Translations under genes and position numbers: made by a program
In this document: piece after piece, positions 17,740-32,137 of the stretch
Position numbering within the stretch: the stretch's first letter is position 1
How the letters are laid out: the number at the start of each line of letters is the position of its first letter
The notes under the pieces: model-generated
What the model saw: only the letters and a program-made list of their open reading frames with translations
Told to the model about the DNA's origin: nothing
The model's database searches: none
Source of the DNA: Lachnospiraceae bacterium
GTDB taxonomy: Bacteria; Bacillota; Clostridia; Lachnospirales; Lachnospiraceae
Direction: 5' to 3'
DNA length: 32,137 nucleotides
Assembly: GCA_022510605.1 (NCBI GenBank)
Contig: JAFLTB010000030.1
Coordinates: 1-32,137 of the forward strand

Positions 17740-17779
17740 AATACATGCGCAATCAAGGGGCGCAGGAATGAGGGGAATC

Positions 17780-18751
17780 ATGGCAAGAAGAAGGATAACG
17801 GAAAAAGATGCGATTGTGTGGTCAGGAGTACTGGGACTTGTAGTGCTTTTGCTTTTCATTTTAGCAATGAATCCATTTTCCGGTTTTGGAAGCGAAATAG
17901 CAGATAGCGGACAGAGTGACAATATGACGGCCAGCGGCTCAGGGGCGGCGCTTAGCGTGGCAGAAGAAACATCCCTGCCAGCTACTGGTTCTGCCGTGCT
18001 TATTAACGCCGAAGGTTCTACTCTGGCAGAACGGATTCGCGTGCCGGCAGGGTTTACACGCACTGAGGTCACGGAAGACAGCCTGGATGCCTTCTTGCGG
18101 GATTATCCTTTGAAAAAAGACGGCAAGCCGGTACTTCTTTATAATGGTGAAAAAAAGGATAACCAAGACGCTCATGTGGCGGTATTCAAACTTCCGCTGG
18201 AAAAGGAAGATTTACAGCAGTGCGCTGATTCCGTGATGCGGGTGTATGGGGAGTATTTCTGGAAAACCGAGCAATATGAAAGAATCTCCTTCCGCTTTGT
18301 AGATGGATTTCAGGCGGATTATATGAGATGGCGGGAGGGTTACCGTATTCAGACAGGAAACAGCAGGTCTTCCTGGATAGCCAGCGAAACCTACGACGAT
18401 ACGTATGAAAATTTTCAAAAATATATGCGCATGGTCTTTGCCTATGCCAGCACCATTTCCATGCAGGAAGAATCGAAAAAAATAAAACTGGCGAAAATCC
18501 AGACAGGAGATATCTTTCTGAAGGCCGGAAGTCCCGGCCATGTGGTGATGGTGGTGGATATGTGTGAAAACGAAGAAGGAAAAAAGGCCTTCCTGCTGGG
18601 ACAGGGCTATATGCCGGCCCAGGAATTCCATCTCCTGAAAAATCCGATGCATGAGGATGATCCGTGGTATTATGAGGAGGAGATAGTTTATCCATTGGAG
18701 ACACCGGAGTTTACTTTTGAAAAGGGAACGCTGCGGCGGCTGAAGTACTAA
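17780..18751 (+). CDS. DUF4846-family membrane-anchored protein
   Basis: A 323-residue protein with one N-terminal membrane helix (about 12-34), a Ser/Gly/Ala-rich linker (TASGSGAALSVAEE), then a DUF4846-like domain. Characteristic stretches are SFRFVDGFQADYMRWREGYR, IQTGDIFLKAGSPGHVVMVVDM, KAFLLGQGYMPAQEFHLLKN and DPWYYEEE. The domain has conserved His, Asp and Gln residues suggestive of an active site, but the activity is not established. I prefer the ATG at 17780, with GAGGGG 5 nt upstream, over the ATG at 17768. The linker resembles those of the lipoproteins from 20148 on. A strong terminator follows at 18791. Confidence 0.72.
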   Translation: MARRRITEKDAIVWSGVLGLVVLLLFILAMNPFSGFGSEIADSGQSDNMTASGSGAALSVAEETSLPATGSAVLINAEGSTLAERIRVPAGFTRTEVTEDSLDAFLRDYPLKKDGKPVLLYNGEKKDNQDAHVAVFKLPLEKEDLQQCADSVMRVYGEYFWKTEQYERISFRFVDGFQADYMRWREGYRIQTGNSRSSWIASETYDDTYENFQKYMRMVFAYASTISMQEESKKIKLAKIQTGDIFLKAGSPGHVVMVVDMCENEEGKKAFLLGQGYMPAQEFHLLKNPMHEDDPWYYEEEIVYPLETPEFTFEKGTLRRLKY

Positions 18752-18837: not shown

Positions 18838-18871
18838 CGTCTAAATGGTGGGAATTTCGTCTGAATGATAG

Positions 18872-18977: not shown

Positions 18978-19946
18978 GTGGCAAAACTGGGATTGATAGA
19001 AAAAATTGAACAGGATGCCGATATGAGGCAGCTTTGGAATCAATTAGGTGAAAAGAGACGTCAGGAACTACGGGAGATTGATACGGGAAAACGGGTACCC
19101 AATTTTTTAAGTGATACAATGTTTAAGGGGATTTTTAATCCGGATATTAATGCGGAGCGGTTATCCCGTTTTATTAGTAGTATTTTGGGAAAGAAAATAA
19201 AGGTGATTCACTCTTTGGATAAAGAGGGGATGCGGCACAGTCAGTACAGCAAAGGAATTGTTTTGGATATTCTGGCAGAATTTGAAAATGGAGCCATTGG
19301 AAATGTGGAAATTCAGAGACAGGGGATTGCTTTTCCGCCGAAACGTGCCGCTGTTTATTCGGCAAATATGCTGACAAGGCAGTATACGTCAGGAGAGACC
19401 AGCAAAAAGTCCGAAGTGGACTACAATACAGTACAGCCAGTTTATACTATTATTATCATGGAGCAAAGTCCTGCAGAATTTCGAAAATCTGGAGCGTACA
19501 TACATCATTTCCGTCAGAGAAGTGATACCGGGCTGGAACTGGAATTATTACAGTATTACGATTATATCTGTCTGGATAATTTTTGCAGACAAAGGCCCTG
19601 TATCGTCGGAGAGTTGGAAAACTGGCTGACTTTTCTAAGCCTTCGTGATGTAGAGGGCATGAAAGAGTTTCTGGCAAGAGAAAAATCTTTTCAACCCGTG
19701 TATGATTGTGCTATAATGATGTTGGCAAATCGAAAGGAGTTGATGGCGATGCTGTCGGAAATGTTGGCAAATGAAGATATTGTAGCAAGCCTGAATCTTA
19801 CCAATGAATCAACCATAAAACGTTTGCAGCAGGAAAAGCAGGAGATACTTAAAGAAAGTGAGAGAGCGCTTCGAGAAAAAGAAGCAGAAATCCAAAGACT
19901 AAAAGAACAGTTAAAGCAGATACAATCGAATATATGCGGTCAGTAA
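18978..19946 (+). CDS. Rpn/PD-(D/E)XK_2 family nuclease (transposase_31-like)
   Basis: A 322-residue protein of the Rpn family. The N-terminal nuclease domain opens with FLSDTMFKGIFN (the conserved D-x-x-FK entry), then LDILAEFENGAIGNVEIQRQG: Asp and Glu of the PD-(D/E)XK core with ExQ in place of ExK, as usual in this family. PKRAAVYSANMLTRQY and PVYTIIIMEQSP follow. The C-terminus (about 255-322) is a helical coiled coil rich in Lys, Glu and Gln. E. coli Rpn proteins are DNA endonucleases linked to RecA-independent recombination and phage defence. GGGAGG (18968-18973) directly serves the GTG at 18978; the ATG at 18945 has no ribosome site. The gene stands alone between terminators and carries an internal start for its C-terminus. 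Confidence 0.82.
   Translation: MAKLGLIEKIEQDADMRQLWNQLGEKRRQELREIDTGKRVPNFLSDTMFKGIFNPDINAERLSRFISSILGKKIKVIHSLDKEGMRHSQYSKGIVLDILAEFENGAIGNVEIQRQGIAFPPKRAAVYSANMLTRQYTSGETSKKSEVDYNTVQPVYTIIIMEQSPAEFRKSGAYIHHFRQRSDTGLELELLQYYDYICLDNFCRQRPCIVGELENWLTFLSLRDVEGMKEFLAREKSFQPVYDCAIMMLANRKELMAMLSEMLANEDIVASLNLTNESTIKRLQQEKQEILKESERALREKEAEIQRLKEQLKQIQSNICGQ
19709..19717 (+). promoter_or_regulatory. Internal extended -10 promoter within the Rpn gene
   Basis: TGC followed by perfect TATAAT (19712-19717) inside the Rpn coding region. TTTTCA at 19688-19693 is a weak -35 with 18-nt spacing. The start would be near 19724, just before the ribosome site at 19733-19739. Confidence 0.5.
19749..19946 (+). 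CDS. Possible intragenic small protein (RpnS-like) from the Rpn gene
   Basis: An in-frame internal start giving the last 65 residues of the Rpn protein (MLSEMLANEDIVASLNLTNE, then a Lys/Glu-rich helix). AAAGGAG (19733-19739) is 9 nt before the ATG at 19749; another in-frame ATG at 19743 has only 3 nt spacing. An extended -10 promoter lies just upstream. In enterobacteria, rpn genes make a short C-terminal protein from inside the gene that blocks the toxic full-length nuclease. The arrangement here is what that model predicts, but expression is unproven. The product would be cytoplasmic and could bind the coiled-coil end of the long form. Confidence 0.45.
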   Translation: MLSEMLANEDIVASLNLTNESTIKRLQQEKQEILKESERALREKEAEIQRLKEQLKQIQSNICGQ

Positions 19947-19972
19947 GCGCAGGCGGTGTCCTGCGCTTTTTT
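19946..19972 (+). terminator. Rho-independent terminator after the Rpn gene
   Basis: AGCGCAGG (19946-19953), loop CGGTGT, CCTGCGCT (19960-19967), then five T. The first base overlaps the Rpn stop codon. A perfect 8-bp GC-rich stem makes this a strong terminator. Confidence 0.9.
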
Positions 19973-19983
19973 GTTTGTATATT

Positions 19984-20014
19984 CACTCATCACTTCTTTA
20001 GATGAGTGCTTTTT
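19984..20014 (+). terminator. Second terminator-like hairpin
   Basis: CACTCATC (19984-19991) pairs with GATGAGTG (20001-20008), followed by C and five T (20010-20014). It is a back-up terminator 11 nt after the first. The A-rich loop contains no T run for the opposite strand. Confidence 0.65.
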
Positions 20015-20057
20015 GTACATAGGAATATAAAACATGAAAACTCAAGCACATACCAGG

Positions 20058-20086
20058 TTGACAAATTAAACTTGTCACGCTATAAT
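20058..20086 (+). promoter_or_regulatory. Consensus promoter with internal dyad, start of the lipoprotein operon
   Basis: TTGACA (20058-20063), exactly 17 nt, TATAAT (20081-20086): perfect in both boxes and spacing. A dyad TGACAA (20059-20064), 7 nt, TTGTCA (20072-20077) spans the -35 box and spacer and could bind a repressor dimer. Start would be near 20093, leaving a leader of about 55 nt. Confidence 0.85.
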
Positions 20087-20147
20087 AAGGTTTACAAAGT
20101 AAATTAAAAAACATCTATGTGCGAAAATTGTTAGAGGAGGAACAGGG

Positions 20148-21326
20148 TTGATAGAGAAGGATAAGGGCCGATGTGCTAAAAAGAGCCTCCCAAAGCTGCT
20201 TTGCTGTATGCTGATGGCTTCTATGGCGTTGACTGCCTGTGGAAGCGGGCAAAACCGAAGGGCTGGAGCAGAGTATGATGACGGAGCGGAGAGGCAGGCC
20301 AGCAGCAGTGCCATAGGGGAAACAACTGTGCCGGGTGCGACGGTGGAAGGAACCTGGGTAGAGGAGGAGCACCCGGCTTGGAACAGTAACCTCTGGCCGG
20401 CGTATGTTACGGATGAGGAATTGTTTTATGTTGTGAATGGGGATAAATCCCTGGCAGAAAAGGATGAACTTTGGAGTATTCCATTGGAGGAGGAAGGCCA
20501 CCGGCCTCAGATGGACAGGGCAGAAAAGATACTGGAAGAAAAGGGGACAATAGAAGAATTTGTATATGCAGATTCCCAGTATATTGCCTATACCAGAAGG
20601 CAGTCTACTTATGTAGAATATGATAGAGGGGCCAAAAAGCGAATAGGAGTAGGAAGTGCGGATGAGAAAACCGGCAACTGGCAGTTGGCAGCAGGGGTAT
20701 CGGGAAATACTGTTTTGCTGACAGACTATCCCGTTACGGGAACTTATGCGCATACAGTGGGAAGTGGAAGGGTTCAGAAAATAGAAAAAAACAGGGTGAT
20801 AAATGCGGAACGATGCCTGGTGTCTGTCTGGGGGGACAGATTATTTTATACAGGTGTTGTAAAGTCAGTGGTACGGAACAGAGGCGATGCAGTAATGGAT
20901 GACAGTATATATGTCTATGATAGCGGAACGAAGAAAAAGAGCACATTTTTGAAAAAGGAAAAGTGGCAGGACTTTTTTGAAAAGGAAACGAATGCCGAGG
21001 CGGGAGAAATAGAAGCTCTTTTTACTGCCGGAGGCCGGTTGTATATCACTGCCGGTATTTGGGGGGAAGAGGATGTACTGGTGATGAGTTGTCCGCTGGA
21101 GGGCAGGAAGAAACTGCGGGCGGAAAAGGAACTGTCACAGTTTCTGGGACAATGTGAGGACGCCGATATCTATGATATGATTGGAAATCGATGTCTGATT
21201 TGGGAAGAAGGCGAAGAGGGGACGGAATTATATTCCTGGCGGCTTGACACAGGAGAATATAAGAAACTGGAAAGTACCGACCCGGAACGGTTTTTTTGGA
21301 GCTATGGTGATTATTTTACACTTTGA
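20148..21326 (+). CDS. Lipoprotein of the paralogous beta-propeller-like family, copy 1
   Basis: A 392-residue predicted lipoprotein with signal peptide and lipobox LTAC (Cys31). The body carries the family signature: DELWSIPLEEEGHRPQMDRA (about 106-125), YADSQYIAY, VEYDRGAKKR, HTVGSGRVQKIE, IYVYDSGTKKK, AGGRLYIT, VMSCPLEGRKKLRAEKELSQ and WRLDTGEYKKLE. These repeated read-out strands suggest a beta-propeller fold facing outward. It is the most divergent copy: it lacks the N-terminal CNDYHLYT motif and has its own linker. The start is TTG with AGAGGAGG 7 nt upstream; no better ATG precedes the signal peptide. It is first in an operon of nine genes. Function unknown. Confidence 0.78.
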   Translation: MIEKDKGRCAKKSLPKLLCCMLMASMALTACGSGQNRRAGAEYDDGAERQASSSAIGETTVPGATVEGTWVEEEHPAWNSNLWPAYVTDEELFYVVNGDKSLAEKDELWSIPLEEEGHRPQMDRAEKILEEKGTIEEFVYADSQYIAYTRRQSTYVEYDRGAKKRIGVGSADEKTGNWQLAAGVSGNTVLLTDYPVTGTYAHTVGSGRVQKIEKNRVINAERCLVSVWGDRLFYTGVVKSVVRNRGDAVMDDSIYVYDSGTKKKSTFLKKEKWQDFFEKETNAEAGEIEALFTAGGRLYITAGIWGEEDVLVMSCPLEGRKKLRAEKELSQFLGQCEDADIYDMIGNRCLIWEEGEEGTELYSWRLDTGEYKKLESTDPERFFWSYGDYFTL

Positions 21327-21371
21327 GCATTGGAATGACTTGTAAATAGATGAAAGGAAGACGGTGAGATA

Positions 21372-22727
21372 ATGAACAGGAGCAAGTATCTATTATCCAT
21401 ATTACTCTGCGTCAGCATGATAGCAGGGCTGGCGGGCTGCGGTATACAAAATAATGCCGGAAATGCTTCGGCCAGCGGAGCGGGCATTGACGATTCGGAT
21501 TCAGTCACGGGCTCTGCTACAGAGGCGGAGGCGCAGCAGCCAGATTTTGACAGCCAGTACCAGTTTTGTAACGACTGGCATTTGTATACAAATGCGGAAA
21601 ACGGCTTTGAGCAAAGGAACTTAGAGGGAGAGAAACTGGCCGATTTTGCTTATCCAAGGACAGATGAAGAGGGCTATACTCGTGTATGCCTGGTCAACAA
21701 TCGGGAGATTTTTTACGAGGTCTTTACAGAAAAAACGGAGTGGGAGCTGTGGAGTATTCCTCTGGAGAAGGGGAGTCATCAGCCTCGGGTAGATAAGGCG
21801 GAAAAAGTGCTGCAGGAAAACTCGCTGTGGTGGGAGGATGACTATGGGATGTATGCGGATTCCCGGTATATCGCTTTTGTTCTTACAGGCTCAGATGATG
21901 AGAGATATGGACACCATGATGGGAGATATGTGGAATACGACAGACAGTCCGGCAAGAGAATTGACATTGATGACCTCCATAACAAGGAAGGGTATTATGG
22001 TCTGGCAAATGAAAGGATTATGTCGGACACCGTCTGGCTTTATAGCGATTTGAATGAATATCCGGATGGAAAAGTAGAGGAGGTCAAAGGCTGTACATAC
22101 CGGCATGTGGTGGGAAGCGGCGAGGTTGAGAGAATGGACCGTATCGGGTGTTGGGATGATATGCGCAGCTTTTACTCTGTGTATGCAGGGGAGTATATGT
22201 ATTACTATATGGGGTGCTATGAAAAAGCAGATCTCTACAGACTGGATACCCGCACAGGGAAACGGGAGAAATTTCTCACCTGGAAGCAGCTAAGGCAGAA
22301 TTGTGAGAAAGAAGGATTTAGCGGGTTTGATGGGATTTATGGCCTTATTGCCGCAGGGGGGCGGTTATATATAGATGCCTCTGTGGATGGATGGGATTCA
22401 AACGGGGATGGGAGTATTGATGAAAGGGATTTTTCCTGGGCTGCGTTCAGCTGCTCTTTAACAGATGCCGGGGACCTGACTTATGAAAAGAAATTGCAGG
22501 AGTTTATGCTGAATACGGGCAATGGTTTCCCTGAGGCGGAGGAAGTAGTGGATACAATGGCCTTTTTTCCTATGGACCCTATCGATATGACGAATTACGG
22601 ATATTGCTATCATCTGGACACCGGAGAATATAAAAAGGTGAAAAAAAGTGACCCGGAAAGATGGATTTGGTATTACAACAATGAGTTAGACCCGGAGGAA
22701 GAGAAGGATGGCGTATGGTGGTGGTAG
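21372..22727 (+). CDS. Lipoprotein paralogue, copy 2, with an EF-hand-like loop
   Basis: A 451-residue predicted lipoprotein: signal peptide, lipobox LAGC (Cys23), a low-complexity linker (NNAGNASASGAGIDDSDS), then the family body with YQFCNDWHLYTN, ELWSIPLEKGSHQPRVDKAE, YADSRYIAF, VEYDRQSGKRI, HVVGSGEVERMD, LYRLDTRTGKREK, AGGRLYI and YHLDTGEYKKVKKSDPERW. Unique to this copy is DSNGDGSIDERD (residues 342-353), a textbook EF-hand/dockerin calcium loop, inserted after GGRLYIDASVDGW. It starts 45 nt after copy 1. The protein should be anchored to the outer face of the membrane. Calcium binding is inference; the overall role is unknown. Confidence 0.8.
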   Translation: MNRSKYLLSILLCVSMIAGLAGCGIQNNAGNASASGAGIDDSDSVTGSATEAEAQQPDFDSQYQFCNDWHLYTNAENGFEQRNLEGEKLADFAYPRTDEEGYTRVCLVNNREIFYEVFTEKTEWELWSIPLEKGSHQPRVDKAEKVLQENSLWWEDDYGMYADSRYIAFVLTGSDDERYGHHDGRYVEYDRQSGKRIDIDDLHNKEGYYGLANERIMSDTVWLYSDLNEYPDGKVEEVKGCTYRHVVGSGEVERMDRIGCWDDMRSFYSVYAGEYMYYYMGCYEKADLYRLDTRTGKREKFLTWKQLRQNCEKEGFSGFDGIYGLIAAGGRLYIDASVDGWDSNGDGSIDERDFSWAAFSCSLTDAGDLTYEKKLQEFMLNTGNGFPEAEEVVDTMAFFPMDPIDMTNYGYCYHLDTGEYKKVKKSDPERWIWYYNNELDPEEEKDGVWWW

Positions 22728-22776
22728 CGGCGATGGCAGAAAAGAGCATGAAATATTCATACTGGGAGGGAAATTC

Positions 22777-24171
22777 ATGAAAAAGAGAAATTATATATTA
22801 TCCATATTACTTTGTATCAGTATAATAACAGGACTGGCAGGCTGCGGACTGAAAAATAATGCCGGAAATACATCGGCCAGCGGAGCGGGCATGGATGGTT
22901 CGGACTCCGTTACGGGTTCTGGTGTGGGAGAGGGTAAGGCAGCTGGCACTGGCACGAATCAATACCGTTACTGTAATGACTATCATTTATACACCCAGAA
23001 TGGAAAAGGAAATCTGGAGCAGAGGACTCTGGCAGGTGAGAAAATAGAAGAATTTGCCTGTGGGATATCCGGCGCTGATTCCTACTGGGAAAGGGTGTTG
23101 ATGTATGTAGATAATCAGGAAATTTTTTATATTATCCGAAACCAGGATGAGGATGGTAATCCAGATGAACTATGGAGTGTTCCGCTGGAGAAGGACAGCC
23201 ATCGCCCTTTGATGAAGAATGCGGAAAAGGTACTGGAAGCAGAAAAAGGAATGTCCCTTGACTATCTCTATGCGGATTCTTCTTATATTGCCTATTGTGA
23301 TTTAAATTATGCCTTTACGGAGTATGACAGGGTGAAGAAAAAAGAAATTGCGGTTGACAAAAAAACGACGGAGGAGGAAAATGAAAGGGAGTGGTACTCT
23401 ACCCCTGATGACTGGGATGAAAAATTTGACGATAGTGAATTGTCTGGTCCATGGAGCAGGACGATACTGCTAAGCCGGAATAATGTATCGAAGAATAAAG
23501 GGCCAGAGGGATTGTATGTCCACACAATAGGGAGTGGAAAAGTAGAGAAAATAGAGGATTTCTGGGACGATGATTATATTGACCCATATCCGGCAATGGC
23601 TCCCCAGGGCGATAAGATTGCATATCTTTCGGCAGGGGATTTTGCCAGAGGAGATGACAGAAGAGACGAACTGGAAAATCACCGGATTTGTATTTACGAT
23701 TGCAAAACCGGGAAAAAGAGGAAGCTTGCTTCCTGCAAAGAGATAAAACAGCTGATAGAGAGAGAAGGCTCTGCAGAACTTGAGTTTATACGCAATCTTT
23801 ATATAATGGGAAATCGTTTATACATGGAGCTGGATGTGGATATGGGAGAAGATATGTTTGGGATAGGCCAGGTAGTAAGCTGTCCGCTGGAAGGAGAAGG
23901 GGAACTGCGTTATGAAAAAGAGTTAAATCAGTTTCTGATGAAGCTGGAAAAACAAAAGGAAGCGGATGAATTAGGCGCTTATGTCTATGACATATTGGAA
24001 AATCGCTGTCTGCTTTATCTGGTATCGAATGTGGGGGACACAGAGAAATATTATATATGGGATTTTGAGACAGGAAAGGGTAAAAAACGGGAGGAGGCAG
24101 ATTCTGACTTTTATCTCAGTTACTATAATGCAAGAACATCGGAATTACTGTTTCCTTATCTTTATCAATAG
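22777..24171 (+). CDS. Lipoprotein paralogue, copy 3
   Basis: A 464-residue predicted lipoprotein: MKKRNYILS signal peptide, lipobox LAGC (Cys23), linker NNAGNTSASGAGMDGSDS, then YRYCNDYHLYTQ, DELWSVPLEKDSHRPLMKNA, YADSSYIAY, TEYDRVKKKEI, VHTIGSGKVEKIE, ICIYDCKTGKKRK, MGNRLYMELDV, VVSCPLEGEGELRYEKELNQ, ILENRCLLY and WDFETGKGKKREEAD. The ATG at 22777 follows GGGAGG by 7 nt; a longer frame from 22708 overlaps copy 2 and would hide the signal peptide. Its first 130 bases closely match copy 2, whereas the body is clearly diverged. Function unknown. Confidence 0.82.
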   Translation: MKKRNYILSILLCISIITGLAGCGLKNNAGNTSASGAGMDGSDSVTGSGVGEGKAAGTGTNQYRYCNDYHLYTQNGKGNLEQRTLAGEKIEEFACGISGADSYWERVLMYVDNQEIFYIIRNQDEDGNPDELWSVPLEKDSHRPLMKNAEKVLEAEKGMSLDYLYADSSYIAYCDLNYAFTEYDRVKKKEIAVDKKTTEEENEREWYSTPDDWDEKFDDSELSGPWSRTILLSRNNVSKNKGPEGLYVHTIGSGKVEKIEDFWDDDYIDPYPAMAPQGDKIAYLSAGDFARGDDRRDELENHRICIYDCKTGKKRKLASCKEIKQLIEREGSAELEFIRNLYIMGNRLYMELDVDMGEDMFGIGQVVSCPLEGEGELRYEKELNQFLMKLEKQKEADELGAYVYDILENRCLLYLVSNVGDTEKYYIWDFETGKGKKREEADSDFYLSYYNARTSELLFPYLYQ

Positions 24172-24206
24172 GATTTCTGCCGGGAATTTTATGAGGAGGA
24201 GAGAGG

Positions 24207-25601
24207 ATGAAAAAGCGAAACGGCGTATTAGCGTTCTTAATTTGCGCCAGTCTGTTGACAGGACTGGCGGGCTGTAATCCTCAGAATACCGCAGGAAATA
24301 CAGGGGAAAATGCCACAGGGGCAGGAGTGGCAGATACGGCCAGCGGGGCAGGAATCGACGATTCTGATTCGGCTGTGAGCAGGACGACGGAAGTCAGTAT
24401 GAATGATAGGTATCGTTTCTGTAACGACTATCATTTATACACCCATACGGAAAAGGGAACATTGGAACAGCGGAAGTTTACAGGGGAGAAGATGGAGGAA
24501 TTTTCTTATAGCGGGAATGAGAAAGAAAAGGACAAGTACATAGAACTTCTTGCCGTCACCAATGAAGAAATTTTCTACAATATAGCGGTAGAAGAGGAGA
24601 AATTTGAACTGCGGTGTATTCCTCTGGAGGAGGAAAGCCACCGTCCCCAGGTGGACAGAGCAGAGAAAGTGTTATCAGGCGATGACCTGCCGGAGCATTT
24701 TTTAGGTCTCTATGCGGATTCACGTTATATCGCCTACTTTACCAGAAGTGGTAAATTTGTGGAATATGACAGAGAACAAAAGAAAATGAAAACCGTAGAT
24801 GAAAAGAATCCGTCCAATGGATGGTGCAGTCCTTATAGTGCTGATACTGCGCCGCAGGGAGCCTGGGGGAGTACGATACTGCTGTCCCGGGATAAAACAG
24901 AGAATAAGGGCCATAGGGAAGGGCTTTACCTTCACGACATAGGGAGTGGAACAGTTACGAAGATAGACAAGACAAAATATTGGAAGAGGGCCGGCGGGGC
25001 ATTCGCTTCCCAGGGAGATTTGCTTGTTTTTTCCGGAAGAAATTATAATGGGCCGGAGCCGGGAGTGGCAGATGATTCTACGATATATATCTGTGATGTC
25101 CGGACAAAGGAAAAGCGGGTACTGGTAGCGGAAAAGCAGGTGGCAGCAGAATTACAGGAGCGGATGCCAGGTTTTTCCTTCTTCGTGTCAAAATTGGAAA
25201 TGGCAGGAAGCCGATTATATATTACGATGTATGGAAACGATGGAGACACCACCTGCAACCGGGTACTCAGTTGTCCCCTGACCGGAGAGGGGGAGGTCAC
25301 CTATGAGCAGGGACTGAACCAGTTTTTGGAGGTGGTAGAGAAAGAAGGGGATACGGTGGCTTATCTATGGACGTTCCTTGAGGACCGGTGCTTTATCTAC
25401 TATGAAGACGAGGATAAATATGTATATGAAGAGGAAAAGGCACTGACAGAGGAACAAAAGGAAGCGGACGAGATAAATGAATGGGCAGAATGGCCATGGG
25501 GTTATTATGATATTTACTCGTACCGCTTTGATACAGGAGAGGCTGTCAAACTGGAAAAAGAAAACCCGGAATTCTATGTTACCTTTTATAATTCAATCTG
25601 A
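24207..25601 (+). CDS. Lipoprotein paralogue, copy 4
   Basis: A 464-residue predicted lipoprotein: lipobox LAGC (Cys23), linker NTAGNTGENATGAGVADTAS extended with a second SGAGIDDSDS block like that of copy 2. The body has YRFCNDYHLYTH, EEIFYN, LRCIPLEEESHRPQVDRAEK, YADSRYIAYF, VEYDREQKKMK, LHDIGSGTVTKID, IYICDVRTKEKR, AGSRLYITM, VLSCPLTGEGEVTYEQGLNQ, LEDRCFIYYED and YRFDTGEAVKLEKENPEF. A Glu-rich insert (YVYEEEKALTEEQKEADEI) precedes the last strand. GGAGGAGAGAGG is directly upstream of the ATG; the gap from copy 3 is 35 nt. Function unknown. Confidence 0.82.
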   Translation: MKKRNGVLAFLICASLLTGLAGCNPQNTAGNTGENATGAGVADTASGAGIDDSDSAVSRTTEVSMNDRYRFCNDYHLYTHTEKGTLEQRKFTGEKMEEFSYSGNEKEKDKYIELLAVTNEEIFYNIAVEEEKFELRCIPLEEESHRPQVDRAEKVLSGDDLPEHFLGLYADSRYIAYFTRSGKFVEYDREQKKMKTVDEKNPSNGWCSPYSADTAPQGAWGSTILLSRDKTENKGHREGLYLHDIGSGTVTKIDKTKYWKRAGGAFASQGDLLVFSGRNYNGPEPGVADDSTIYICDVRTKEKRVLVAEKQVAAELQERMPGFSFFVSKLEMAGSRLYITMYGNDGDTTCNRVLSCPLTGEGEVTYEQGLNQFLEVVEKEGDTVAYLWTFLEDRCFIYYEDEDKYVYEEEKALTEEQKEADEINEWAEWPWGYYDIYSYRFDTGEAVKLEKENPEFYVTFYNSI

Positions 25602-25632
25602 CATGAAATTTTTGTAGAGAGAGGAGAAGAAA

Positions 25633-26985
25633 ATGAAAAAGAAAAGCCGTGTAATAGCCGCAGCCCTGGCTGTCAGTCTGGTTATCGGTCTGGCGGGCTG
25701 TAATACTCAGAATACCTCAGGAAGTAAAGAGGGCAGTGCCACAGAAAATGCCACCGGGGCAGGTGTTACAGATACTGCCAGCGGGGAAATAAATGACAAG
25801 TACCGCTTTTGCAACGACTATCATCTGTATAGCGAGACAGCGGATGGTTTTGTGCAGCGGGATTTTACCGGAGAGCAGATAGAAACATTCACCTATGAAA
25901 AGCCAGAGACGGGAAAGGACAGCTTTATAAGGCTGTTTGGCGTTACCAATGAGGAGATTTTCTATGTGGAAAAGGGAAAAAAGGAGGACAAACTCTGGTG
26001 CGCTCCTTTGGATAAGGACAGCCACCGCCCGCAGATGGCAGAGGCGGGAGAGGTGCTGTCGGAGGAGACAATTGATGTATCCGGCGGCCTTTATGCGGAT
26101 TCCCATTATATTGCCTTTTTCACGGTATTTATGAATAAACTGGTAGAATACGACAGGGAAAAAGGGAAGAAAATACCGGTGGATAATACATCATCAGATA
26201 CCACATACGGCCCGCCCTATGGTCCCTTTACCTATCAGAAGGATGCCTGGGAAGATACGGTATTGTTATCCAAAGACACAGATGACCCGGTTGTTTATCA
26301 GGAGGGAATTTATCTCCATACCATAGGGAGTGGAAGGGTTACGAAGCTGGAAGAGTATAGCAGGGTAAAGGGCCAGAGGGAAAGTGTTTACGTTGCCTCC
26401 CAGGGGGACGTTATTGCCGTCTGCGATAGTGATGGATATTATGGAGCGCCTGCCATATATGTCTATGATACCGGGACGGGAGAGAGACGTGAAATTGTTT
26501 CCAGAAAGAAATGGAAGAAAAAACTAAAAGAAAACTTTGACTCCGCCTGTATCATAACAGACTTATATATGGTGGGGGAGCGGCTTTATTTTCTGATACA
26601 GACCCTGGGGGAAGTGGATTATGGACAGTATTATATATGGAGTTGTCCATTGTCGGGTGAGGGAGGATTGAGGATGGAAAAGGAAAGGAATCAATTTCTG
26701 AGGAATCTGGAGAAGCAGGCGGGAGAAGACGCTTCGGCCAATATTCAGAATATTTTGAAAGACCGCATATATGCTTACACGTATGAAGAAAATGAAGAAG
26801 ATGAGGAAGATGAGGAAGATGAGGATGACTGGGAGGACGAAATCTGGGGAGTTGAAACCTGGGAAGCGGAAAATGGATGGCAGAATGGGGATAACGTCCA
26901 GTTTTATATGTATCGCACAGATACAGGCGAGGTTGTCAAACTGAATCCGGATGACCCGGAATTGGCCCTTGCGTTCATGAAATAG
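25633..26985 (+). CDS. Lipoprotein paralogue, copy 5, with acidic C-terminal tract
   Basis: A 450-residue predicted lipoprotein: lipobox LAGC (Cys23), linker NTSGSKEGSATENATGAG, then YRFCNDYHLYSE, EEIFYVE, KLWCAPLDKDSHRPQMAEAG, YADSHYIAFF, VEYDREKGKKIP, LHTIGSGRVTKLEE, IYVYDTGTGERRE, VGERLYFLI, WSCPLSGEGGLRMEKERNQF and YRTDTGEVVKLNPDDPEL. Near the C-terminus lies a run of Glu and Asp (nt about 26790-26845, YEENEEDEEDEEDEDD) that is absent from the other copies and could bind cations. The coding GAAGAT repeats there are prone to length change. It starts 31 nt after copy 4. Function unknown. Confidence 0.82.
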   Translation: MKKKSRVIAAALAVSLVIGLAGCNTQNTSGSKEGSATENATGAGVTDTASGEINDKYRFCNDYHLYSETADGFVQRDFTGEQIETFTYEKPETGKDSFIRLFGVTNEEIFYVEKGKKEDKLWCAPLDKDSHRPQMAEAGEVLSEETIDVSGGLYADSHYIAFFTVFMNKLVEYDREKGKKIPVDNTSSDTTYGPPYGPFTYQKDAWEDTVLLSKDTDDPVVYQEGIYLHTIGSGRVTKLEEYSRVKGQRESVYVASQGDVIAVCDSDGYYGAPAIYVYDTGTGERREIVSRKKWKKKLKENFDSACIITDLYMVGERLYFLIQTLGEVDYGQYYIWSCPLSGEGGLRMEKERNQFLRNLEKQAGEDASANIQNILKDRIYAYTYEENEEDEEDEEDEDDWEDEIWGVETWEAENGWQNGDNVQFYMYRTDTGEVVKLNPDDPELALAFMK

Positions 26986-27046
26986 GTAATATGTTACTTT
27001 TTTGTTTCTTTGCATTAGCATTGTGAAAAGGAAAAGGAGGAGGAAA

Positions 27047-28465
27047 ATGAAAAAAGCGATATTAGCGGTTGCGCTGGGAATCAGCATGATAGCCGGTTTG
27101 TCCGGCTGTGGCCTGACAAACACGGCAGGGGACAGTGCCAGTGAAACGGCTACGGGTGCAGTTGTCAGTGGCAGTGGAGTAGTCAGTGGCAGCGGAGTTG
27201 TCAGTGACAGTGCTGTCAGGGAAGAAACGGACACAGATACAGTCATCCGTGATTCCGCAGCCAAGAAAAACAAACAGGAAAGCAAGGTAAAAGTCAATGC
27301 TGCCAGCGCATATCGTTACTGCAATGATTGGCATCTGTATGAAAAAACGTTATTTAAAAGCGCCATCATACAAAAGACATTGACTGGGAAAGTGTTGCAA
27401 AAATATTCTGCCTCTGGCCGTTCCGGTGGAGGTCCAGCCAGTTTCCTTCAAGGAGAAGAGGTAGAACTGTGCTATGTCAATAATGAGGAACTTATTTTTT
27501 CAAACTATGATGTATGTGAACCGGATGAACTGTGGAGCATTCCCTTGAGTGGAAAGAACCATAGTCCAGAGCTGGATAAGGCAAAGCTGGTGCTGGAGGA
27601 GGAAGAGGCCTATATATGCCCGGATGATGTAATTTATGCCGACTCCCGTTATATTGTCTATAAAGTATTGACAGGCAGTGATACCACCAGTGTATATATG
27701 GAATTTGACCGCCAGCAGAACAAGAAAGTAAAGATTGATGCCGAGGGAAATGAATATGAATGGATAAGCTGGAGTGAAGATCAACTGGTGAAGCAGAAAA
27801 AAGTTTTGTTGTCCAGAATAACCGAATGGGATACTTCCTCTATGTATTCTTTCGACACGAAAGGGAGTAGTATATCAGAAGGCCTTTATGTACATACAAT
27901 AGGGAGTGGGGAAGTGACCAGGATTGAAGAGGACTATAATACAGAGGTTTCTTATATATGGTGGACGGTAGAGGGAGAGAACGTATATTATACAGGACTT
28001 GCCCGGAAACCCTCAAATGAGATAGACAATTCTATATATGTCTACAACTGTAGAACCGCTGAGAAACATACTCTTTTGCAGGGGGAGCAATTGGAGAATC
28101 TGTGTAGGGAAGTATTGCCAGGGGAAGAATATAAAAGGGCAGGTTTTCTTTATGTGGTAAATAATCGGTTGTATATTGAGTCAGGTGCTTTTATTGCCAG
28201 TTATCCATTAGAGGGACAGGGTACATTGAAGTACGAGAAGAAACTGGCACAACTTATAAATGCCCATAATTCAAATTATTATGTTGTGAAATATGTTAAA
28301 GACCGCTGTTTACTTCAATTTGATACTGATTCTGGAAGAAAGGCGAATGAGGCAATTATAGATTATTCTTATAATTTTAGCAGTGGTAAATTAAAAAAGG
28401 TGAAAAAGGGGACCTCTGAAGAAGCCTTGTGGTATTATGAGTATGATTTGGATATGTCTCAATAG
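27047..28465 (+). CDS. Lipoprotein paralogue, copy 6, with 18-bp repeats in the linker
   Basis: A 472-residue predicted lipoprotein: MKKAILAVALGISMIAG signal peptide, lipobox LSGC (Cys21), a linker with three 18-bp tandem units (27161-27214) coding VVSGSG repeats, then YRYCNDWHLYEK, PDELWSIPLSGKNHSPELDK, YADSRYIVYK, MEFDRQQNKKVK, VHTIGSGEVTRIEE, IYVYNCRTAEKH, VNNRLYIESG, IASYPLEGQGTLKYEKKLAQ and VKDRCLLQFD. Cys in the SCPLEG motif is replaced by Ser-Tyr. The ATG at 27047 follows AGGAGGAGG; the 27002 start lacks a site. It lies 61 nt after copy 5. Function unknown. Confidence 0.8.
   Translation: MKKAILAVALGISMIAGLSGCGLTNTAGDSASETATGAVVSGSGVVSGSGVVSDSAVREETDTDTVIRDSAAKKNKQESKVKVNAASAYRYCNDWHLYEKTLFKSAIIQKTLTGKVLQKYSASGRSGGGPASFLQGEEVELCYVNNEELIFSNYDVCEPDELWSIPLSGKNHSPELDKAKLVLEEEEAYICPDDVIYADSRYIVYKVLTGSDTTSVYMEFDRQQNKKVKIDAEGNEYEWISWSEDQLVKQKKVLLSRITEWDTSSMYSFDTKGSSISEGLYVHTIGSGEVTRIEEDYNTEVSYIWWTVEGENVYYTGLARKPSNEIDNSIYVYNCRTAEKHTLLQGEQLENLCREVLPGEEYKRAGFLYVVNNRLYIESGAFIASYPLEGQGTLKYEKKLAQLINAHNSNYYVVKYVKDRCLLQFDTDSGRKANEAIIDYSYNFSSGKLKKVKKGTSEEALWYYEYDLDMSQ
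27161..27214 (+). repeat. Three 18-bp tandem repeats in the copy 6 linker
   Basis: Units start at 27161, 27179 and 27197, each GTWGTCAGTGRCAGYG followed by two variable bases. They code Val-Val-Ser-Gly-Ser-Gly-type repeats just after the lipobox and can change in number by slippage without shifting the frame. Confidence 0.75.
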
Positions 28466-28504
28466 TGAAAGTGCCAAACCAATGGAATCAGAGGAGGCTT
28501 GAAA

Positions 28505-29794
28505 ATGAGAAAAGCGATATTAGCGGTTGCTCTGGGAATCAGCATGATAGCTGGTCCGTCCGGCTGTGACCTGGCAAACACGGCGGGGAACAGCACCAGT
28601 GGAACGGCTGTGTCTATGGGTGCGGCTACGGATGCAGGTGTCAGCGGGAGCGCCGTGAAGGAGCAAAATGTCTCGGGTGAAGCAGTGGAGAGGGAGGAGA
28701 GCCGGGAGCCCTATTGTAACAGTACGAACTACTATGTAGATAACGGATTACAGGGAATTGAACAGAAAACACGGGACGGAAAGCATGTTCGTACCATTGT
28801 TCTAAAGGAAGATGGCTATGTGGAATTAAGGTATGTGACAGACCGTGAAATTTTTTATACAGTAACCGGTAATTGGGACGAGCCGGTGCCGCTGTGGAGC
28901 ATTCCCATCGAAAAAACAGAAAATGGGGATGAACCGATGCTGGAAAAGGCAGAAAAGGTGCTGGTGGAAGAAGAGGATATGATTGATGGCGCCAATGAGG
29001 CCCTTCCAGGCGATGGAATCTTTTATGCAGATGAAAATTATATTGTGTATCAAAGTTATTATGATATACGGGTATATGACCGCAGGAATAAGAAATTTAT
29101 TTCACTGAAGGGAGAGCCCCGGGATAAAATGGGGGTGGCTAACAATGCCATCAGCATAGCGGACGCCATGTGTGACGGACGAATTTTTATCAGTACAAAA
29201 AGCAAGGGACTTTATCAATACAAGCTGGGGACCGATAAAGTCCTGCCGGTGGATAAAAAGGTCTATGGAGCGGCGTCGGTGATAACCTGCGACAAAAAAA
29301 ATACCGTGTATTACTGGCGGTGGGAGGATAAAAAGGACAGCGAAGAAAATCTGTGGGTTTATGACTGTGAAACCGGGAAGAGGCAAATTTACCTTTCCCA
29401 GGAAAAATGGCATAAGGCCTTTGTGGAGGCGGGGCTGCTCCCGGCGGACAGCAGGGTCAGCGATGTGGATGCCATCGGTGATTTGTATGAAGATGGAGGA
29501 CGGTTATATAATGTGGTGGGCAGAGAAGTATTTTCCTGTGATTTGGAGAAGGGCACGATACAATATGAAAGAGGGTTAAGCAATTGCCTGAAGGATAAGA
29601 ACAGGAATGGTGAAAAATATTCGGTTCTGACCATGATAGATGGCATATGTTTGCTGGAAAATAATCAAAAGGATTTCTGGTACTATGCCTGCTATGATTT
29701 TTCCAGAGAAAAGCAGCAGTGGCGGGAACTGGATAAGGATGCTCCCGAAAGGAAGTATTTAGGCTGGATAGGGGCCGAGGCCCGCATGGAATAG
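28505..29794 (+). CDS. Lipoprotein paralogue, copy 7, with altered lipobox
   Basis: A 429-residue member of the same family: signal peptide nearly identical at DNA level to copy 6, but the lipobox reads PSGC (Cys21) because TTG became CCG at the -3 position. The linker is NTAGNSTSGTAVSMGAATDA. The body has diverged: NSTNYYVDNGLQGIEQKTRD, DREIFYT, PLWSIPIEKTENGDEPMLEK, FYADENYIVYQ, IRVYDRRNKKFI, LWVYDCETGKRQ, DGGRLYNVV and FSCDLEKGTIQYERGLSNCL. The SHRPQ and HTIGSG motifs are lost. GAGGAGG lies 7 nt before the ATG at 28505. Lipid attachment may be impaired. Function unknown. Confidence 0.78.
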   Translation: MRKAILAVALGISMIAGPSGCDLANTAGNSTSGTAVSMGAATDAGVSGSAVKEQNVSGEAVEREESREPYCNSTNYYVDNGLQGIEQKTRDGKHVRTIVLKEDGYVELRYVTDREIFYTVTGNWDEPVPLWSIPIEKTENGDEPMLEKAEKVLVEEEDMIDGANEALPGDGIFYADENYIVYQSYYDIRVYDRRNKKFISLKGEPRDKMGVANNAISIADAMCDGRIFISTKSKGLYQYKLGTDKVLPVDKKVYGAASVITCDKKNTVYYWRWEDKKDSEENLWVYDCETGKRQIYLSQEKWHKAFVEAGLLPADSRVSDVDAIGDLYEDGGRLYNVVGREVFSCDLEKGTIQYERGLSNCLKDKNRNGEKYSVLTMIDGICLLENNQKDFWYYACYDFSREKQQWRELDKDAPERKYLGWIGAEARME

Positions 29795-29815
29795 ACAAGG
29801 AGGAGTGAAGAAAGG

Positions 29816-31042
29816 ATGCAACAGAATACAAAGAAAAAAATAAAAATACTGGCTGGTATGTTCCTTTTTCTGTTACTGGCAGGAGTAAGCCATACAGCCG
29901 ATACAGCCCAGGCGGCAAAGGTGTATAATAACGGTGGGGAAATAGTAGAGACTGGCGGCCGGATTTACTTTTCTCAATACGGCAAGGGAAAGCAGAAGGG
30001 AATCTTTTCCTTTGACTTAAAAACAAAAAAGAAAAAGAAAATTGTAAGTGGTAAATACGAATCCGTATGGATTGCCGGAAATTCCCTGTACTATACCAGA
30101 GACAAGGAGCTGTACCGCAAAGGCCTGCGTGCCGGCGGCGAGGAAAGTGTATACCAGCATAGCAGTGACATAGATATTCTGGGCTTTGCCAACAAAAACA
30201 GTGAAATCCAGATTTTTGATGGAAAAGGAGTATATCAGCGTACCCTGTCGGGGGAGCAAAAAAGTTTTCGCAGTCTTTCCGACAAGGAAGACATAGGGCG
30301 TGCCGGCAAATTAGGGGAATATATGATTTTTGAAAAAGGTAAGGATATTATTTATGGCACATCGCCGGAGGAACTTCAGACGCTTTCCGGTGTAATGAAG
30401 AAAATTGCCAAAAAGTCCGGTCTGGCTCCTGACTGGTATAATTTCATGGGCGTATATGGGGATTACCTGTATGGCTACATATATGCCCAGCCGGGTACCA
30501 TTGGCTGGAGAATAGGATATCTGTTCCGGGTCTCTCTGAAAAATGGTGACGTGAAGGTGTATAAGAAGTATGAATCCCACTGGGAGGCCTGGGAGATGCG
30601 GGACGGCCGGATTTATACGGACGATTATTCGGCAGAGGGCAAATGGGCTAAAACCCATGTATTTACATTAGATAAAACGACCGGTGCCGTCAAACATAAT
30701 ACCTATCCGTGTTCTTTTAATGGAACCGATGGCAGATATATTTACCAGGCAGGCAGCAGTGCCATTTGCCGGTATGACCCAAAAACCAAAAAGCAAAAGG
30801 TACTGGACGCCCGGTATGAAAAGAAAAAGAATATGTATTATGCACCTCAGTCTACCGGAGCGTCCACGTATCTTCCTGTAATCAATGGGAAGCTGTTTTA
30901 TGCAGTCTACGATTGTAGAAAAGAAAAGTATGTAGGCTGGAGGCTGATGCCTGACCGCCTGGAAAAGAACTATATTGTGCTGAAAACAGGAAAAAGAGTA
31001 ACATATGCTACGACCAAAATGACAAAATATGGAGGATGGTAA
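29816..31042 (+). CDS. Secreted beta-propeller-like protein (DUF5050-like)
   Basis: A 408-residue protein with a cleavable Sec signal peptide (KKKIKILAGMFLFLLLAGVS, probable cut after TAQA) and no lipobox cysteine. The mature part is built of repeated blade-like strands: GGRIYFSQYGKGKQKGIFSF, DLKTKKKKKIVSG, GNSLYYTRDKELYRK, GDYLYGYIYAQ, LFRVSLKNGDVKVYKK, DGRIYTDDY, DGRYIYQAGSSAICRYDPKT and NGKLFYAVYD. Such alternation of read-out and label strands resembles DUF5050/TolB-type propellers. It shares the operon with the lipoprotein copies but not their signature motifs. The highly basic surface may bind the cell wall. The gap from copy 7 is 21 nt. Function unknown. Confidence 0.7.
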   Translation: MQQNTKKKIKILAGMFLFLLLAGVSHTADTAQAAKVYNNGGEIVETGGRIYFSQYGKGKQKGIFSFDLKTKKKKKIVSGKYESVWIAGNSLYYTRDKELYRKGLRAGGEESVYQHSSDIDILGFANKNSEIQIFDGKGVYQRTLSGEQKSFRSLSDKEDIGRAGKLGEYMIFEKGKDIIYGTSPEELQTLSGVMKKIAKKSGLAPDWYNFMGVYGDYLYGYIYAQPGTIGWRIGYLFRVSLKNGDVKVYKKYESHWEAWEMRDGRIYTDDYSAEGKWAKTHVFTLDKTTGAVKHNTYPCSFNGTDGRYIYQAGSSAICRYDPKTKKQKVLDARYEKKKNMYYAPQSTGASTYLPVINGKLFYAVYDCRKEKYVGWRLMPDRLEKNYIVLKTGKRVTYATTKMTKYGGW

Positions 31043-31046
31043 AGGG

Positions 31047-32063
31047 ATGACAGGAATTAGGATTCAGAGAGTTGTGCTTCTTTTGGCGCTGTCCGCTGTC
31101 TTATGTGCCGGCTGTGCCTTACAGAATACCGCAGGAAATGCAGGACAGGAACCAGCGGAAACAGCCAGCGGCAGTGTCGCAAGCGGCATCGCTTATGAGG
31201 CAGAATTGGGAGTAGAGCCAATCCATGTTTCCGATGTAACCAGTCCCGCCGCCGTTCAGGAAAAGTATGGTCTGGCCCTTCCGCAGCTGGAACAGATTTT
31301 AGAGGAATTTGAGTTTCAGGCCTACTGGTCGTACTGGATGAAGGGGAAGGGCGATTATTTAGATGAGGGTATGGTTCTGGAGGCGGCGGAAATATTTGAC
31401 CGGCCCCTGGATGTCAGTGTGTACTATCAGGAAGGCGGCAGTGACTATGCACAGGATTCCCGCTTTTATCGTATCATGTGTCCGGTAGAAACCAAGGAAA
31501 AAGACTTCTGGTTTGTCACCATGATATATGGGCCCAATGGATTTTTAAGTTATTTCAGGGGGGAGGATGCGGAATACATAGAGCCGGAGGATGATGTAAG
31601 GACGCCTAAGGGGAAGAAGCATTATACTTACTTAGGAACCGGGACGGTGTCTCTGGAAAAGGAAAAGGCAGAGGCTTTTGTCTATCAGCCAGGGAATACC
31701 CCCTATCGAAAGTTGGAACTCGAAAAGATAAAGACGGCGGTGGAAAGTAACTTTTCCAGGAAGGGGAAATATAAAATATACATCAAAGAGTTTTTAGAGG
31801 GTGATCACGTTGTTGAGGGGTGCATTGTAGCTCCCGATAATAGCCATACGGATGTTCCGACAGAAAACCAGGGGAATTATACCAAGAACACCCTGTTTTT
31901 AGACAGTATCTTTCAGGATGCGGTAAAATTGAAGGAGTTAGAGGGATTTTATGTGTTTCGGTTTGACGAACGTGAGGAAGGAAGCTATGAGGAAATGACG
32001 GAGCTGGCAGATGAAGAAAAGCCATCCGGGCGTATGGCTTTGATATGGGAATTTGAAAAGTAG
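31047..32063 (+). CDS. Lipoprotein with the operon's linker but an unrelated body
   Basis: A 338-residue predicted lipoprotein. Signal peptide RIQRVVLLLALSAVLCAGC (Cys23; the -3 residue is Cys rather than Leu), then ALQNTAGNAGQEPAETASGS, the same NTAGN linker as the paralogue copies. The body differs: PAAVQEKYGLALPQLEQILE, YWSYWMKGKGDYLDEGMVLE, FWFVTMIYGPNGFLSYFRGE and YTYLGTGTVSLEKEKAEAFV. I do not recognise it. I prefer the ATG at 31047 (GGAGG 11 nt upstream) over 31029, which would overlap the previous gene and add charged residues before the signal peptide. Last gene of the operon; no terminator is visible before the window ends. Confidence 0.72.
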   Translation: MTGIRIQRVVLLLALSAVLCAGCALQNTAGNAGQEPAETASGSVASGIAYEAELGVEPIHVSDVTSPAAVQEKYGLALPQLEQILEEFEFQAYWSYWMKGKGDYLDEGMVLEAAEIFDRPLDVSVYYQEGGSDYAQDSRFYRIMCPVETKEKDFWFVTMIYGPNGFLSYFRGEDAEYIEPEDDVRTPKGKKHYTYLGTGTVSLEKEKAEAFVYQPGNTPYRKLELEKIKTAVESNFSRKGKYKIYIKEFLEGDHVVEGCIVAPDNSHTDVPTENQGNYTKNTLFLDSIFQDAVKLKELEGFYVFRFDEREEGSYEEMTELADEEKPSGRMALIWEFEK

Positions 32064-32116
32064 CCATAAAGCAGACTTAACTAGCAAGAGAAAGAATCCA
32101 ATCGATTCGAACCGGC

Positions 32117-32129: not shown

Positions 32130-32137
32130 AAGGTTCT

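What the first reader, a model, noticed from the sequence alone, without database searches (positions are those of the whole stretch)
20058..32063. Nine-gene operon of tandem paralogous surface lipoproteins of unknown function
Seven consecutive lipoproteins share an ordered set of motifs (CNDYHLYT, WSIPLE..SHRPQ, YADSRYIAY, VEYDR, HTIGSG+V, YDCRTGKKR, GGRLYI, SCPLEGEGELRYEKELNQF, LDTGEYKKLE), likely a propeller fold, followed by a secreted propeller-like protein and another lipoprotein. Gaps are 4 to 61 nt. This is a lineage-specific expansion under one strong promoter and may be a surface-display, phage-receptor or signalling system not described before.
Basis: partly seen in the sequence, partly recalled or inferred. 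Interest (0 to 1): 0.75.

Follow-up and report, generated by a model that had tools for sequence, protein, structure and literature searches.

The report
Tandem propeller lipoproteins, likely toxin immunity
A gut bacterium carries seven related, fast-diverging lipid-anchored proteins, predicted to be propeller-shaped, in one operon; because relatives of them lie directly behind predicted Rhs toxins in sister genomes, the operon is probably a stockpile of immunity proteins, though this is not yet tested.

Summary
In detail: 20148-29794 encodes seven tandem lipoproteins (mature parts 23-41% identical), then a secreted DUF5050-type protein and a lipoprotein of another family, behind a terminator-like hairpin and a 12/12 promoter. 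The family profile shows seven internal repeats and matches DUF5050 propellers at 98%. In this Lachnospiraceae genus 25 of 39 genomes have 1-20 matches; 198 sampled genomes of other genera have none of full length. Copy number differs at shared loci, and 5' signal/lipobox segments are exchanged between neighbours. The functional clue lies outside the window: six of 19 scanned Rhs tips match zinc phospholipase C (one below cut-off), and all six Rhs genes are followed by propeller-class lipoproteins. One of these is a true family member, 50-67% identical to a tandem array of the same genome. Most likely the arrays are orphan immunity repertoires, working like S. aureus TilA/Lpl but with another fold. 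That the window's copies confer immunity is inferred: no toxin lies beside them, and most family loci lack one.

The parts
19945..19968 (+). terminator-like hairpin after the preceding gene
   Evidence: 9 pairs, 6 G-C, then TTTTGTTTGT
20058..20086 (+). promoter-like TTGACA-17-TATAAT at the head of the operon
   Evidence: 12 of 12, the only such site in 18700-32137; the orthologous G014 array also has a 12/12 site at its head
20148..21326 (+). lipoprotein copy 1 (TTG start, GGAGG upstream; lacks the CND block; N-terminus unlike the others)
   Evidence: 5' DNA identity to the other copies 0.26-0.36
21372..22727 (+). lipoprotein copy 2, groups with the second G014:C26 copy and a C80 copy
   Evidence: SH-aLRT 99
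22777..24171 (+). lipoprotein copy 3 (ORF open from 22708), groups with the first G014:C26 copy
   Evidence: SH-aLRT 99
24207..25601 (+). lipoprotein copy 4
25633..26985 (+). lipoprotein copy 5, sister of copy 4
   Evidence: SH-aLRT 98
27047..28465 (+). lipoprotein copy 6 (ORF open from 27002)
28505..29794 (+). lipoprotein copy 7 (ORF open from 28499): body of another subfamily, 5' end like copy 6; lipobox reads PSGC
   Evidence: with G034, G020, G013 and C58 copies, SH-aLRT 98; 109 nt at 89% with copy 6 around the lipobox; bodies 29% identical
29816..31042 (+). secreted DUF5050-type protein; a similar gene follows the array in G014
   Evidence: PF16472, 36.1 bits; (L061:9789-11042)
31047..32063 (+). 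ninth gene: lipoprotein of another family (ORF open from 31029)
   Evidence: relatives at 7 further places, two beside family copies
17768..18751 (+). DUF4846 protein upstream (context, not part of the family)
   Evidence: PF16138, 354.7 bits; in 32 of 39 genus genomes; beside an array in G000, G014 and G034 among the listed matches

Best explanation
The operon encodes a repertoire of lipid-anchored, seven-bladed beta-propeller proteins on the outer face of the cell membrane. It most likely works as an orphan immunity array: each propeller binds and neutralises the toxic tip of an Rhs-type toxin (phospholipase C or another surface-acting enzyme) made by related bacteria. New specificities arise by duplication, fast divergence of the propeller and exchange of bodies by recombination at the shared 5' signal-peptide/lipobox segment; some copies decay. 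Shown here from sequence: lipoprotein motif, internal repeats and DUF5050 kinship, genus restriction within the sample, copy-number differences at shared loci, 5' exchange, and family or related propellers directly behind Rhs genes in sister genomes (and a related propeller in this genome). Inferred: that these downstream proteins are immunity proteins, that the window's copies do the same job, and that they bind toxin tips.
For: Fold: internal-repeat score 26.8 against at most 14.1 in 20 column shuffles; the aligned units read as seven. hhalign to DUF5050 98.0%, E 1.5e-13 for 103 family members, 84.5% for the seven window copies alone, 97.6% with a smaller DUF5050 set; five unrelated families at most 16.5%. 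Toxin link: Rhs repeats in 13 of 25 family-positive and 2 of 14 family-negative genomes (Fisher p = 0.038). Of 19 Rhs tips scanned, six match Zn_dep_PLPC, five above the cut-off and L159 at 19.4 bits against 26.8. Among 18 loci whose downstream gene was compared by profile, 6 of 6 PLC and 3 of 12 other Rhs genes are followed by a propeller-class lipoprotein (Fisher p = 0.009). In G006:C89 the downstream gene begins within about 10 nt of the Rhs stop, is a true family member (body profile E 2e-72) and is 50-67% identical to three tandem copies on G006:C139; an orphan PLC tip (32.0 bits) follows, then the start of another family-like lipoprotein. The C139 array also holds a lipoprotein of the PLC-associated group (99.7%; E 4e-37). 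In G031:C279 a family-type lipoprotein (98.2%) follows an Rhs; its best BLAST match among 103 family members is window copy 7 (24%, E 4e-8). The window's own genome has a PLC-tip Rhs followed by a DUF5050 lipoprotein with the QNTAG motif of several array copies. Control: 1 of 60 random genes from the family loci reached 50%. Evolution as in known immunity arrays.
Against: No toxin lies beside the window array, and among the 25 most frequent families in 94 neighbours of 54 family loci none is a known toxin. 12 of 25 family-positive genomes have no PF05593 match; LXG toxins are nearly absent (4 of 39, weak). Five of the six PLC-associated lipoproteins belong to a related propeller group, not to the window's family (group against family 96.8%, body alone 92.2%). 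Two of them match weakly as single sequences (L168 21%, L182 35%) and were counted by homology to the group; in L182 both the Rhs and the lipoprotein are split into two ORFs. Seven of 18 Rhs genes are followed by proteins with no propeller match, and a nineteenth (L183) had no BLAST match. No pair has dN/dS significantly above 1. The genome association is not corrected for relatedness. No structure could be predicted.
Confidence: 0.5

Rival explanations
1. The propellers are diversifying surface binders or antigens: they bind variable host, dietary or neighbour ligands, or vary to escape antibodies, with no toxin involved.
For: Lipoproteins with fast divergence, variable copy number and 5' exchange; most family loci have no toxin neighbour.
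Against: It does not explain why family or related propellers stand directly behind Rhs genes, 6 of 6 with phospholipase C tips.
Confidence: 0.27
2. They are ligand-sensing subunits for the hybrid histidine kinase encoded at 13379-16975.
For: The kinase and DUF4846 precede the array in the window; G014 has a similar-looking long ORF and DUF4846 in the same order (its kinase identity read from the N-terminus only).
Against: G034 has DUF4846 and four copies with no kinase in the 1.3 kb that its contig holds upstream. DUF4846 occurs in 32 of 39 genomes, beside an array in three. Kinases are not among the frequent neighbours of 54 loci. The array has its own terminator-like and promoter-like sites.
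Confidence: 0.04
3. They are non-specific envelope scaffold or chaperone lipoproteins (BamB- or TolB-like) whose duplicates persist by drift.
For: The best PDB match is TolB (7mx5, E 0.0043); broken copies occur in G004 and G020.
Against: 14 of 39 genus genomes have no match at E 1e-10, so they are dispensable. dN/dS of 0.19-0.51 in 12 of 13 close pairs shows that copies are kept under selection.
Confidence: 0.1
4. They are receptors or decoys for phages and vary under phage pressure.
For: Likely surface location and variability; a Cas9 gene in the same window suggests phage exposure.
Against: No direct evidence. One copy each was searched in viral contigs and in phage records, without a relative. 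CRISPR spacers were not compared.
Confidence: 0.07

Closest known systems
S. aureus tandem lipoproteins Lpl/Csa1 (DUF576), with TilA as immunity to the T7SS lipase TslA (PMC10730906, PMC4470592, PMC7360770; passages read)
   Same: Tandem paralogous lipoproteins, variable copy number, recombination between copies; TilA, a member of the family, neutralises a secreted phospholipase
   Different: No DUF576 match; predicted beta-propeller of about 400 aa; shared block is 5' (signal peptide) instead of central; toxins are Rhs proteins, and LXG toxins are nearly absent
EsaG and TipC immunity gene arrays (PMC9484751, passages read)
   Same: Recombination between tandem immunity paralogues at homology blocks changes copy number and makes mosaics; TipC are predicted lipoproteins with a conserved 5' block
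   Different: Other sequence families; T7SS toxins
DUF5050 beta-propellers (PF16472), including TsgL of T7SSg (PMC11217815, one passage read)
   Same: Propeller-type repeats, profile match 98%
   Different: Window copies 1-7 give no PF16472 match; lipobox, Ser/Gly/Ala/Val-rich linker and tandem arrays; TsgL is listed as a secretion-system component
Polymorphic toxin immunity proteins (PMC3482391, PMC12419801; passages read)
   Same: Gene directly downstream of a polymorphic toxin; lipoprotein or membrane-anchored immunity proteins are known for toxins that act outside the cell
   Different: No propeller immunity protein appeared in the passages I saw; the 2012 survey names Imm65 as the only lipoprotein in its collection

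Membership tests
DUF5050 (PF16472) | score above the curated cut-off (27 bits) | tested here: not met
   Copies 1-7: no DUF5050 match at E<=1. Of 46 family bodies 6 match at E<=0.01, best 2.1e-7, and one relative (G005:C44) reaches 31.1 bits. The eighth protein meets it (36.1 bits).
DUF5050-like seven-bladed beta-propeller | homologous propeller repeats | tested here: met
   By sequence only: internal repeats read as seven, hhalign 98.0%, five control families at most 16.5%. No structure available.
Bacterial lipoproteins | signal peptide with lipobox Cys | tested here: met
   Cys in 101 of 101 rows with a residue in that column, 103 rows in all; copy 7 has an atypical PSGC.
Rhs-toxin immunity proteins | gene directly downstream of a polymorphic toxin | tested here: inconclusive
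   Met for a family member in G006:C89 and a family-type protein in G031:C279; not met for the window array and not seen for most family loci, as orphans would behave.
Rhs-toxin immunity proteins | neutralises the cognate toxin | not testable with these tools
   Needs a binding or killing assay.
S. aureus tandem lipoproteins (DUF576) | DUF576 sequence family | tested here: not met
   No such Pfam match up to E = 1.
Tandem immunity arrays evolving by recombination at homology blocks | mosaic genes and copy-number change with breakpoints in a shared block | tested here: met
   Between species only: L113:3189 (G020) is 97% identical to G017 copy 6882 up to +34, and 98% to G017 copy 5084 from -3, relative to the lipobox Cys codon.
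Phase-variable lipoproteins of mycoplasmas (recalled) | invertible or slipping promoter switch | not tested
   No dedicated search was made.

The most novel reading that the evidence does not exclude
A genus of gut Lachnospiraceae uses the beta-propeller as a recognition scaffold for surface immunity: lipid-anchored propellers intercept Rhs toxin tips that attack the membrane or wall from outside, and tandem arrays act as a cassette library in which a propeller body can be placed behind a shared lipoprotein leader by recombination at the lipobox. This would be a class of propeller immunity lipoproteins, and its arrays would help to explain which kin toxins each strain survives.
Probability: 0.4. 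Interest if true: 0.78.

Novelty: new variant of a known kind. Interest (0 to 1): 0.62.

Why it matters
If right, a large set of unannotated tandem lipoproteins in this genus can be read as resistance repertoires, toxin-immunity pairs can be proposed from sequence, and the exchange of 5' leaders gives a testable route by which new immunity genes are displayed at once at the surface. Lipoprotein immunity as such is known (TilA, TipC, Imm65, and others in the passages); a propeller class with large arrays in gut Lachnospiraceae did not turn up in my searches of the held papers, which miss most subscription journals.

Tried and rejected
Signalling link with the upstream kinase: not favoured, because DUF4846 mostly occurs without an array and kinases are not frequent neighbours. 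A shared regulator site (TTGACA-NNN-TAAAC): four hits in the own genome, one of them at the array, so not pursued; a small palindrome overlapping the -35 box is not present in the G014 promoter. A fixed disulphide: the most frequent further Cys is in 55 of 101 rows. Positive selection: one pair at 1.12 is not significant (p = 0.79), the other 12 are 0.19-0.51. Phage or plasmid carriage: no relative of the one copy queried in each collection, nor of a related propeller in plasmids. LXG toxins as partners: 4 of 39 genomes, weak. The first DUF5050 alignment contained wrong-strand sequences and was rebuilt. A 99.1% match between the PLC-associated group and DUF5050 was circular, one protein being in both; without it the match is 94.6%. 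HHalign self-comparison printed nothing. The first lipobox finder mis-set some Cys positions and was replaced by alignment columns; the 'SPid' values are therefore not used.
Full report
What is there. The window is the whole contig C48 of a 2.7-Mb, 123-contig genome. Seven same-strand lipoprotein genes run from 20148 to 29794; a secreted DUF5050-type protein (29816-31042) and a lipoprotein of another family (31047-32063) follow. The copies are 29-40% identical to copy 3, and their mature parts 23-41% to one another. A hairpin at 19945-19968 follows the preceding gene, and a 12/12 promoter-like site lies at 20058-20086. No window copy matches a Pfam or NCBIfam model above its cut-off. Three of the seven copies were given to PHROGs and PADLOC: no match below E 0.06, and none at all, respectively.

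Fold. From 134 family ORFs at E below 1e-3 in the fetched loci, 103 with E below 1e-40 and 370-700 aa were kept. Their profile compared with itself gives an off-diagonal score of 26.8 against at most 14.1 in 20 column shuffles; by my reading the aligned units are seven blade-like repeats. The profile matches a DUF5050 alignment with 98.0% probability (97.6% with a smaller set), the seven window copies alone with 84.5%; five unrelated families score at most 16.5%. A profile search of solved structures gives weak matches, best TolB at E 0.0043; 58 of the 60 rows shown are propellers by my recall, 44 of them WDR5 or its fly orthologue. No structure could be predicted. The lipobox Cys is present in 101 of 101 rows with a residue there; 61 of 103 copies have two or more units of a loose SG(x)AV linker pattern.

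Distribution. With a 46-member body alignment, 25 of 39 genomes of the genus match at E 1e-10, with 1 to 20 matches each, 15 in the window's genome (fragments may count separately). Of 200 genomes of the family, the two of this genus match strongly; 15 of the 198 others match weakly over at most 165 of 386 positions, best 1e-7, as generic propellers would. Of seven named records found through DUF4846, the four closest are Lachnospiraceae or Lachnoclostridium metagenome-assembled genomes. DUF4846 is in 32 of 39 genomes, but among the listed matches an array lies beside it only in G000 (7 copies), G034 (4) and G014 (2). A second locus, between a carboxylase operon and a methyltransferase/ylxM/ffh, holds 11 copies in G023, 3 in G017 and a mixture of whole and broken copies in G004 and G020. 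These are differences between species; strains of one species were not compared.

How it evolves. In the tree (103 rows, quick method with long-branch warnings) window copies 1-6, the C80 pair and the two G014 copies form one group (SH-aLRT 95). The G014 copies pair with different window copies, so at least two copies predate the split. Copy 7 belongs to another subfamily, yet shares 109 nt around the start and lipobox at 89% with copy 6, while their bodies are 29% identical. Among pairs whose bodies are 15-40% identical, adjacent copies have a median 5' DNA identity of 0.52 (n = 30, 6 of them at 0.80 or more) against 0.39 between genomes (n = 4443, 2 at 0.80 or more; pairs are not independent). 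The clearest case is G020 L113:3189: it is 97% identical to the first tandem copy of G017 up to 34 nt past the lipobox codon, and 98% identical to the second copy from 3 nt before it, as a deletion between tandem genes at the lipobox would leave. Body dN/dS of 13 close pairs is 0.19-0.51 in 12 and 1.12 in one, not significantly above 1. Whole-gene values of 12 pairs are 0.13-0.84, against 0.005-0.185 in eight comparisons of flanking genes; the two ranges overlap at the low end, where three of the family pairs have dS of 1.4 to 1.7. The bodies evolve fast under weak constraint.

Where the function shows. The window array has no informative neighbour. For 94 complete immediate neighbours (110-1250 aa) of 54 family loci, the most frequent Pfam families are methyltransferases (8), pyruvate oxidoreductase (6) and NYN (5), and no known toxin is among the 25 shown of 101. 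One odd protein in G034, in which the first part of a family propeller is joined to an Rhs tip with a lysozyme domain beside other Rhs genes, led me to search Rhs repeats: 15 of 39 genomes, 13 of 25 with the family and 2 of 14 without (p = 0.038, not corrected for relatedness). I fetched 27 stretches around listed Rhs matches (the list was capped) and used two fetched before (L145, L135). Eighteen loci had an Rhs C-terminus and a downstream gene that I compared by profile. Left out were L183 (downstream gene compared by BLAST only, no match), L179 and L180 (same Rhs as L169), three very large YD proteins at or near contig ends (L175, L178, L181) and partial or cut Rhs (L135, L161, L163, L184, L185). 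Of 19 tips scanned, five match Zn_dep_PLPC above its cut-off; the main tip of L159 reaches 19.4 bits against 26.8, and the orphan tip beside it 32.0. All six PLC Rhs genes are followed by a propeller-class lipoprotein. Five belong to one homologous group; five of its proteins from four loci, as a profile, match DUF5050 at 94.6% and the window family at 96.8% (body alone 92.2%) without shared members. L168 and L182 match weakly on their own (21% and 35%), and in L182 the Rhs and the lipoprotein are each split into two ORFs. The sixth, in G006:C89, is a true family member, 50-67% identical to three tandem copies of contig C139 of the same genome. Its ORF opens 8 nt inside the Rhs end; from the likelier internal Met it starts about 10 nt after it. 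After it come the orphan PLC tip and the beginning of another lipoprotein with the YANDRNIY motif seen in the last C139 copy; the contig ends there in a 55-base word shared with the end of C139. C139 also includes one member of the PLC-associated group. G006:C31 has a PLC Rhs followed by two lipoproteins of that group and a third, partial-looking member. Of the 12 other tips, three are followed by propeller-class lipoproteins (G016:C20, G018:C24, G031:C279), two by membrane-anchored proteins with 63% and 90% propeller matches (L162, L166), and seven by proteins without a match. The G031 protein is of the family type (98.2%), and its best BLAST match among 103 family members is window copy 7. 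Of 60 random genes from the family loci one reached 50%; it lies in the immunity-like cluster of G036:C21. The window's own genome has a PLC Rhs followed after 54 nt by a DUF5050 lipoprotein (29.8 bits, cut-off 27) with the QNTAG motif of several array copies.

Reading. A lipoprotein directly behind an Rhs toxin is in the position of an immunity gene, and a phospholipase acting from outside would need an immunity protein on the outer face of the membrane. Tandem, variable, recombining paralogues away from the toxin are what orphan immunity arrays look like: esaG and tipC (PMC9484751, passages), and the S. aureus DUF576 lipoproteins, of which TilA neutralises the secreted lipase TslA (PMC10730906, passages). 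The window copies fail the DUF576 test and give no Pfam DUF5050 match, but work, I think, like TilA. I put this at 0.5 for the window operon, higher for the toxin-adjacent proteins. Shown: anatomy, kinship, exchange, adjacency. Inferred: neutralisation, and that orphan copies share it.

Noticed in passing
window 4425-12000: Cas9 (PADLOC E 8e-273), then ORFs to 10375 that look like cas1, cas2 and a fourth cas gene, and repeats that look like a CRISPR array; apart from Cas9 this is read from the ORF list and not tested.
   Followed up: partly
window 18945-19946: A PDDEXK_2/Rpn-type nuclease gene stands just before the array and is absent at the same place in G014 (L061); it may be a recent insertion.
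   Followed up: partly
L135:5464-7392: G034:C59 ORF joins a lipobox and the first part of a family propeller to an Rhs core tip and a phage-lysozyme domain, beside other Rhs genes.
   Followed up: partly
window 31047-32063: The ninth gene has relatives at 7 further places; two of them (G000:C58, G030:C59) lie beside family propellers, so it may be a second immunity-type lipoprotein.
   Followed up: partly
L107:4894-12130: G036:C21 holds a family copy, a PLC-group lipoprotein and several membrane-anchored proteins together, and G036 has no Rhs match: it looks like an orphan immunity island.
   Followed up: partly
G000, 12 places: A QNTAG motif lies just behind the lipobox Cys in the copies I looked at and also in the ninth, non-homologous lipoprotein; the reversed control pattern gave none.
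   Followed up: partly
L118:6486-8525, L137:4517-6520: Some family members carry a C-terminal extension of about 200 aa with a DLDHNGRLE motif; others (L064, L066, L117; 731-819 aa) look like double propellers.
   Followed up: no
window 20059-20077: A small palindrome (TGACAA-N7-TTGTCA) overlaps the -35 box and could be an operator; it is not in the G014 promoter.
   Followed up: partly
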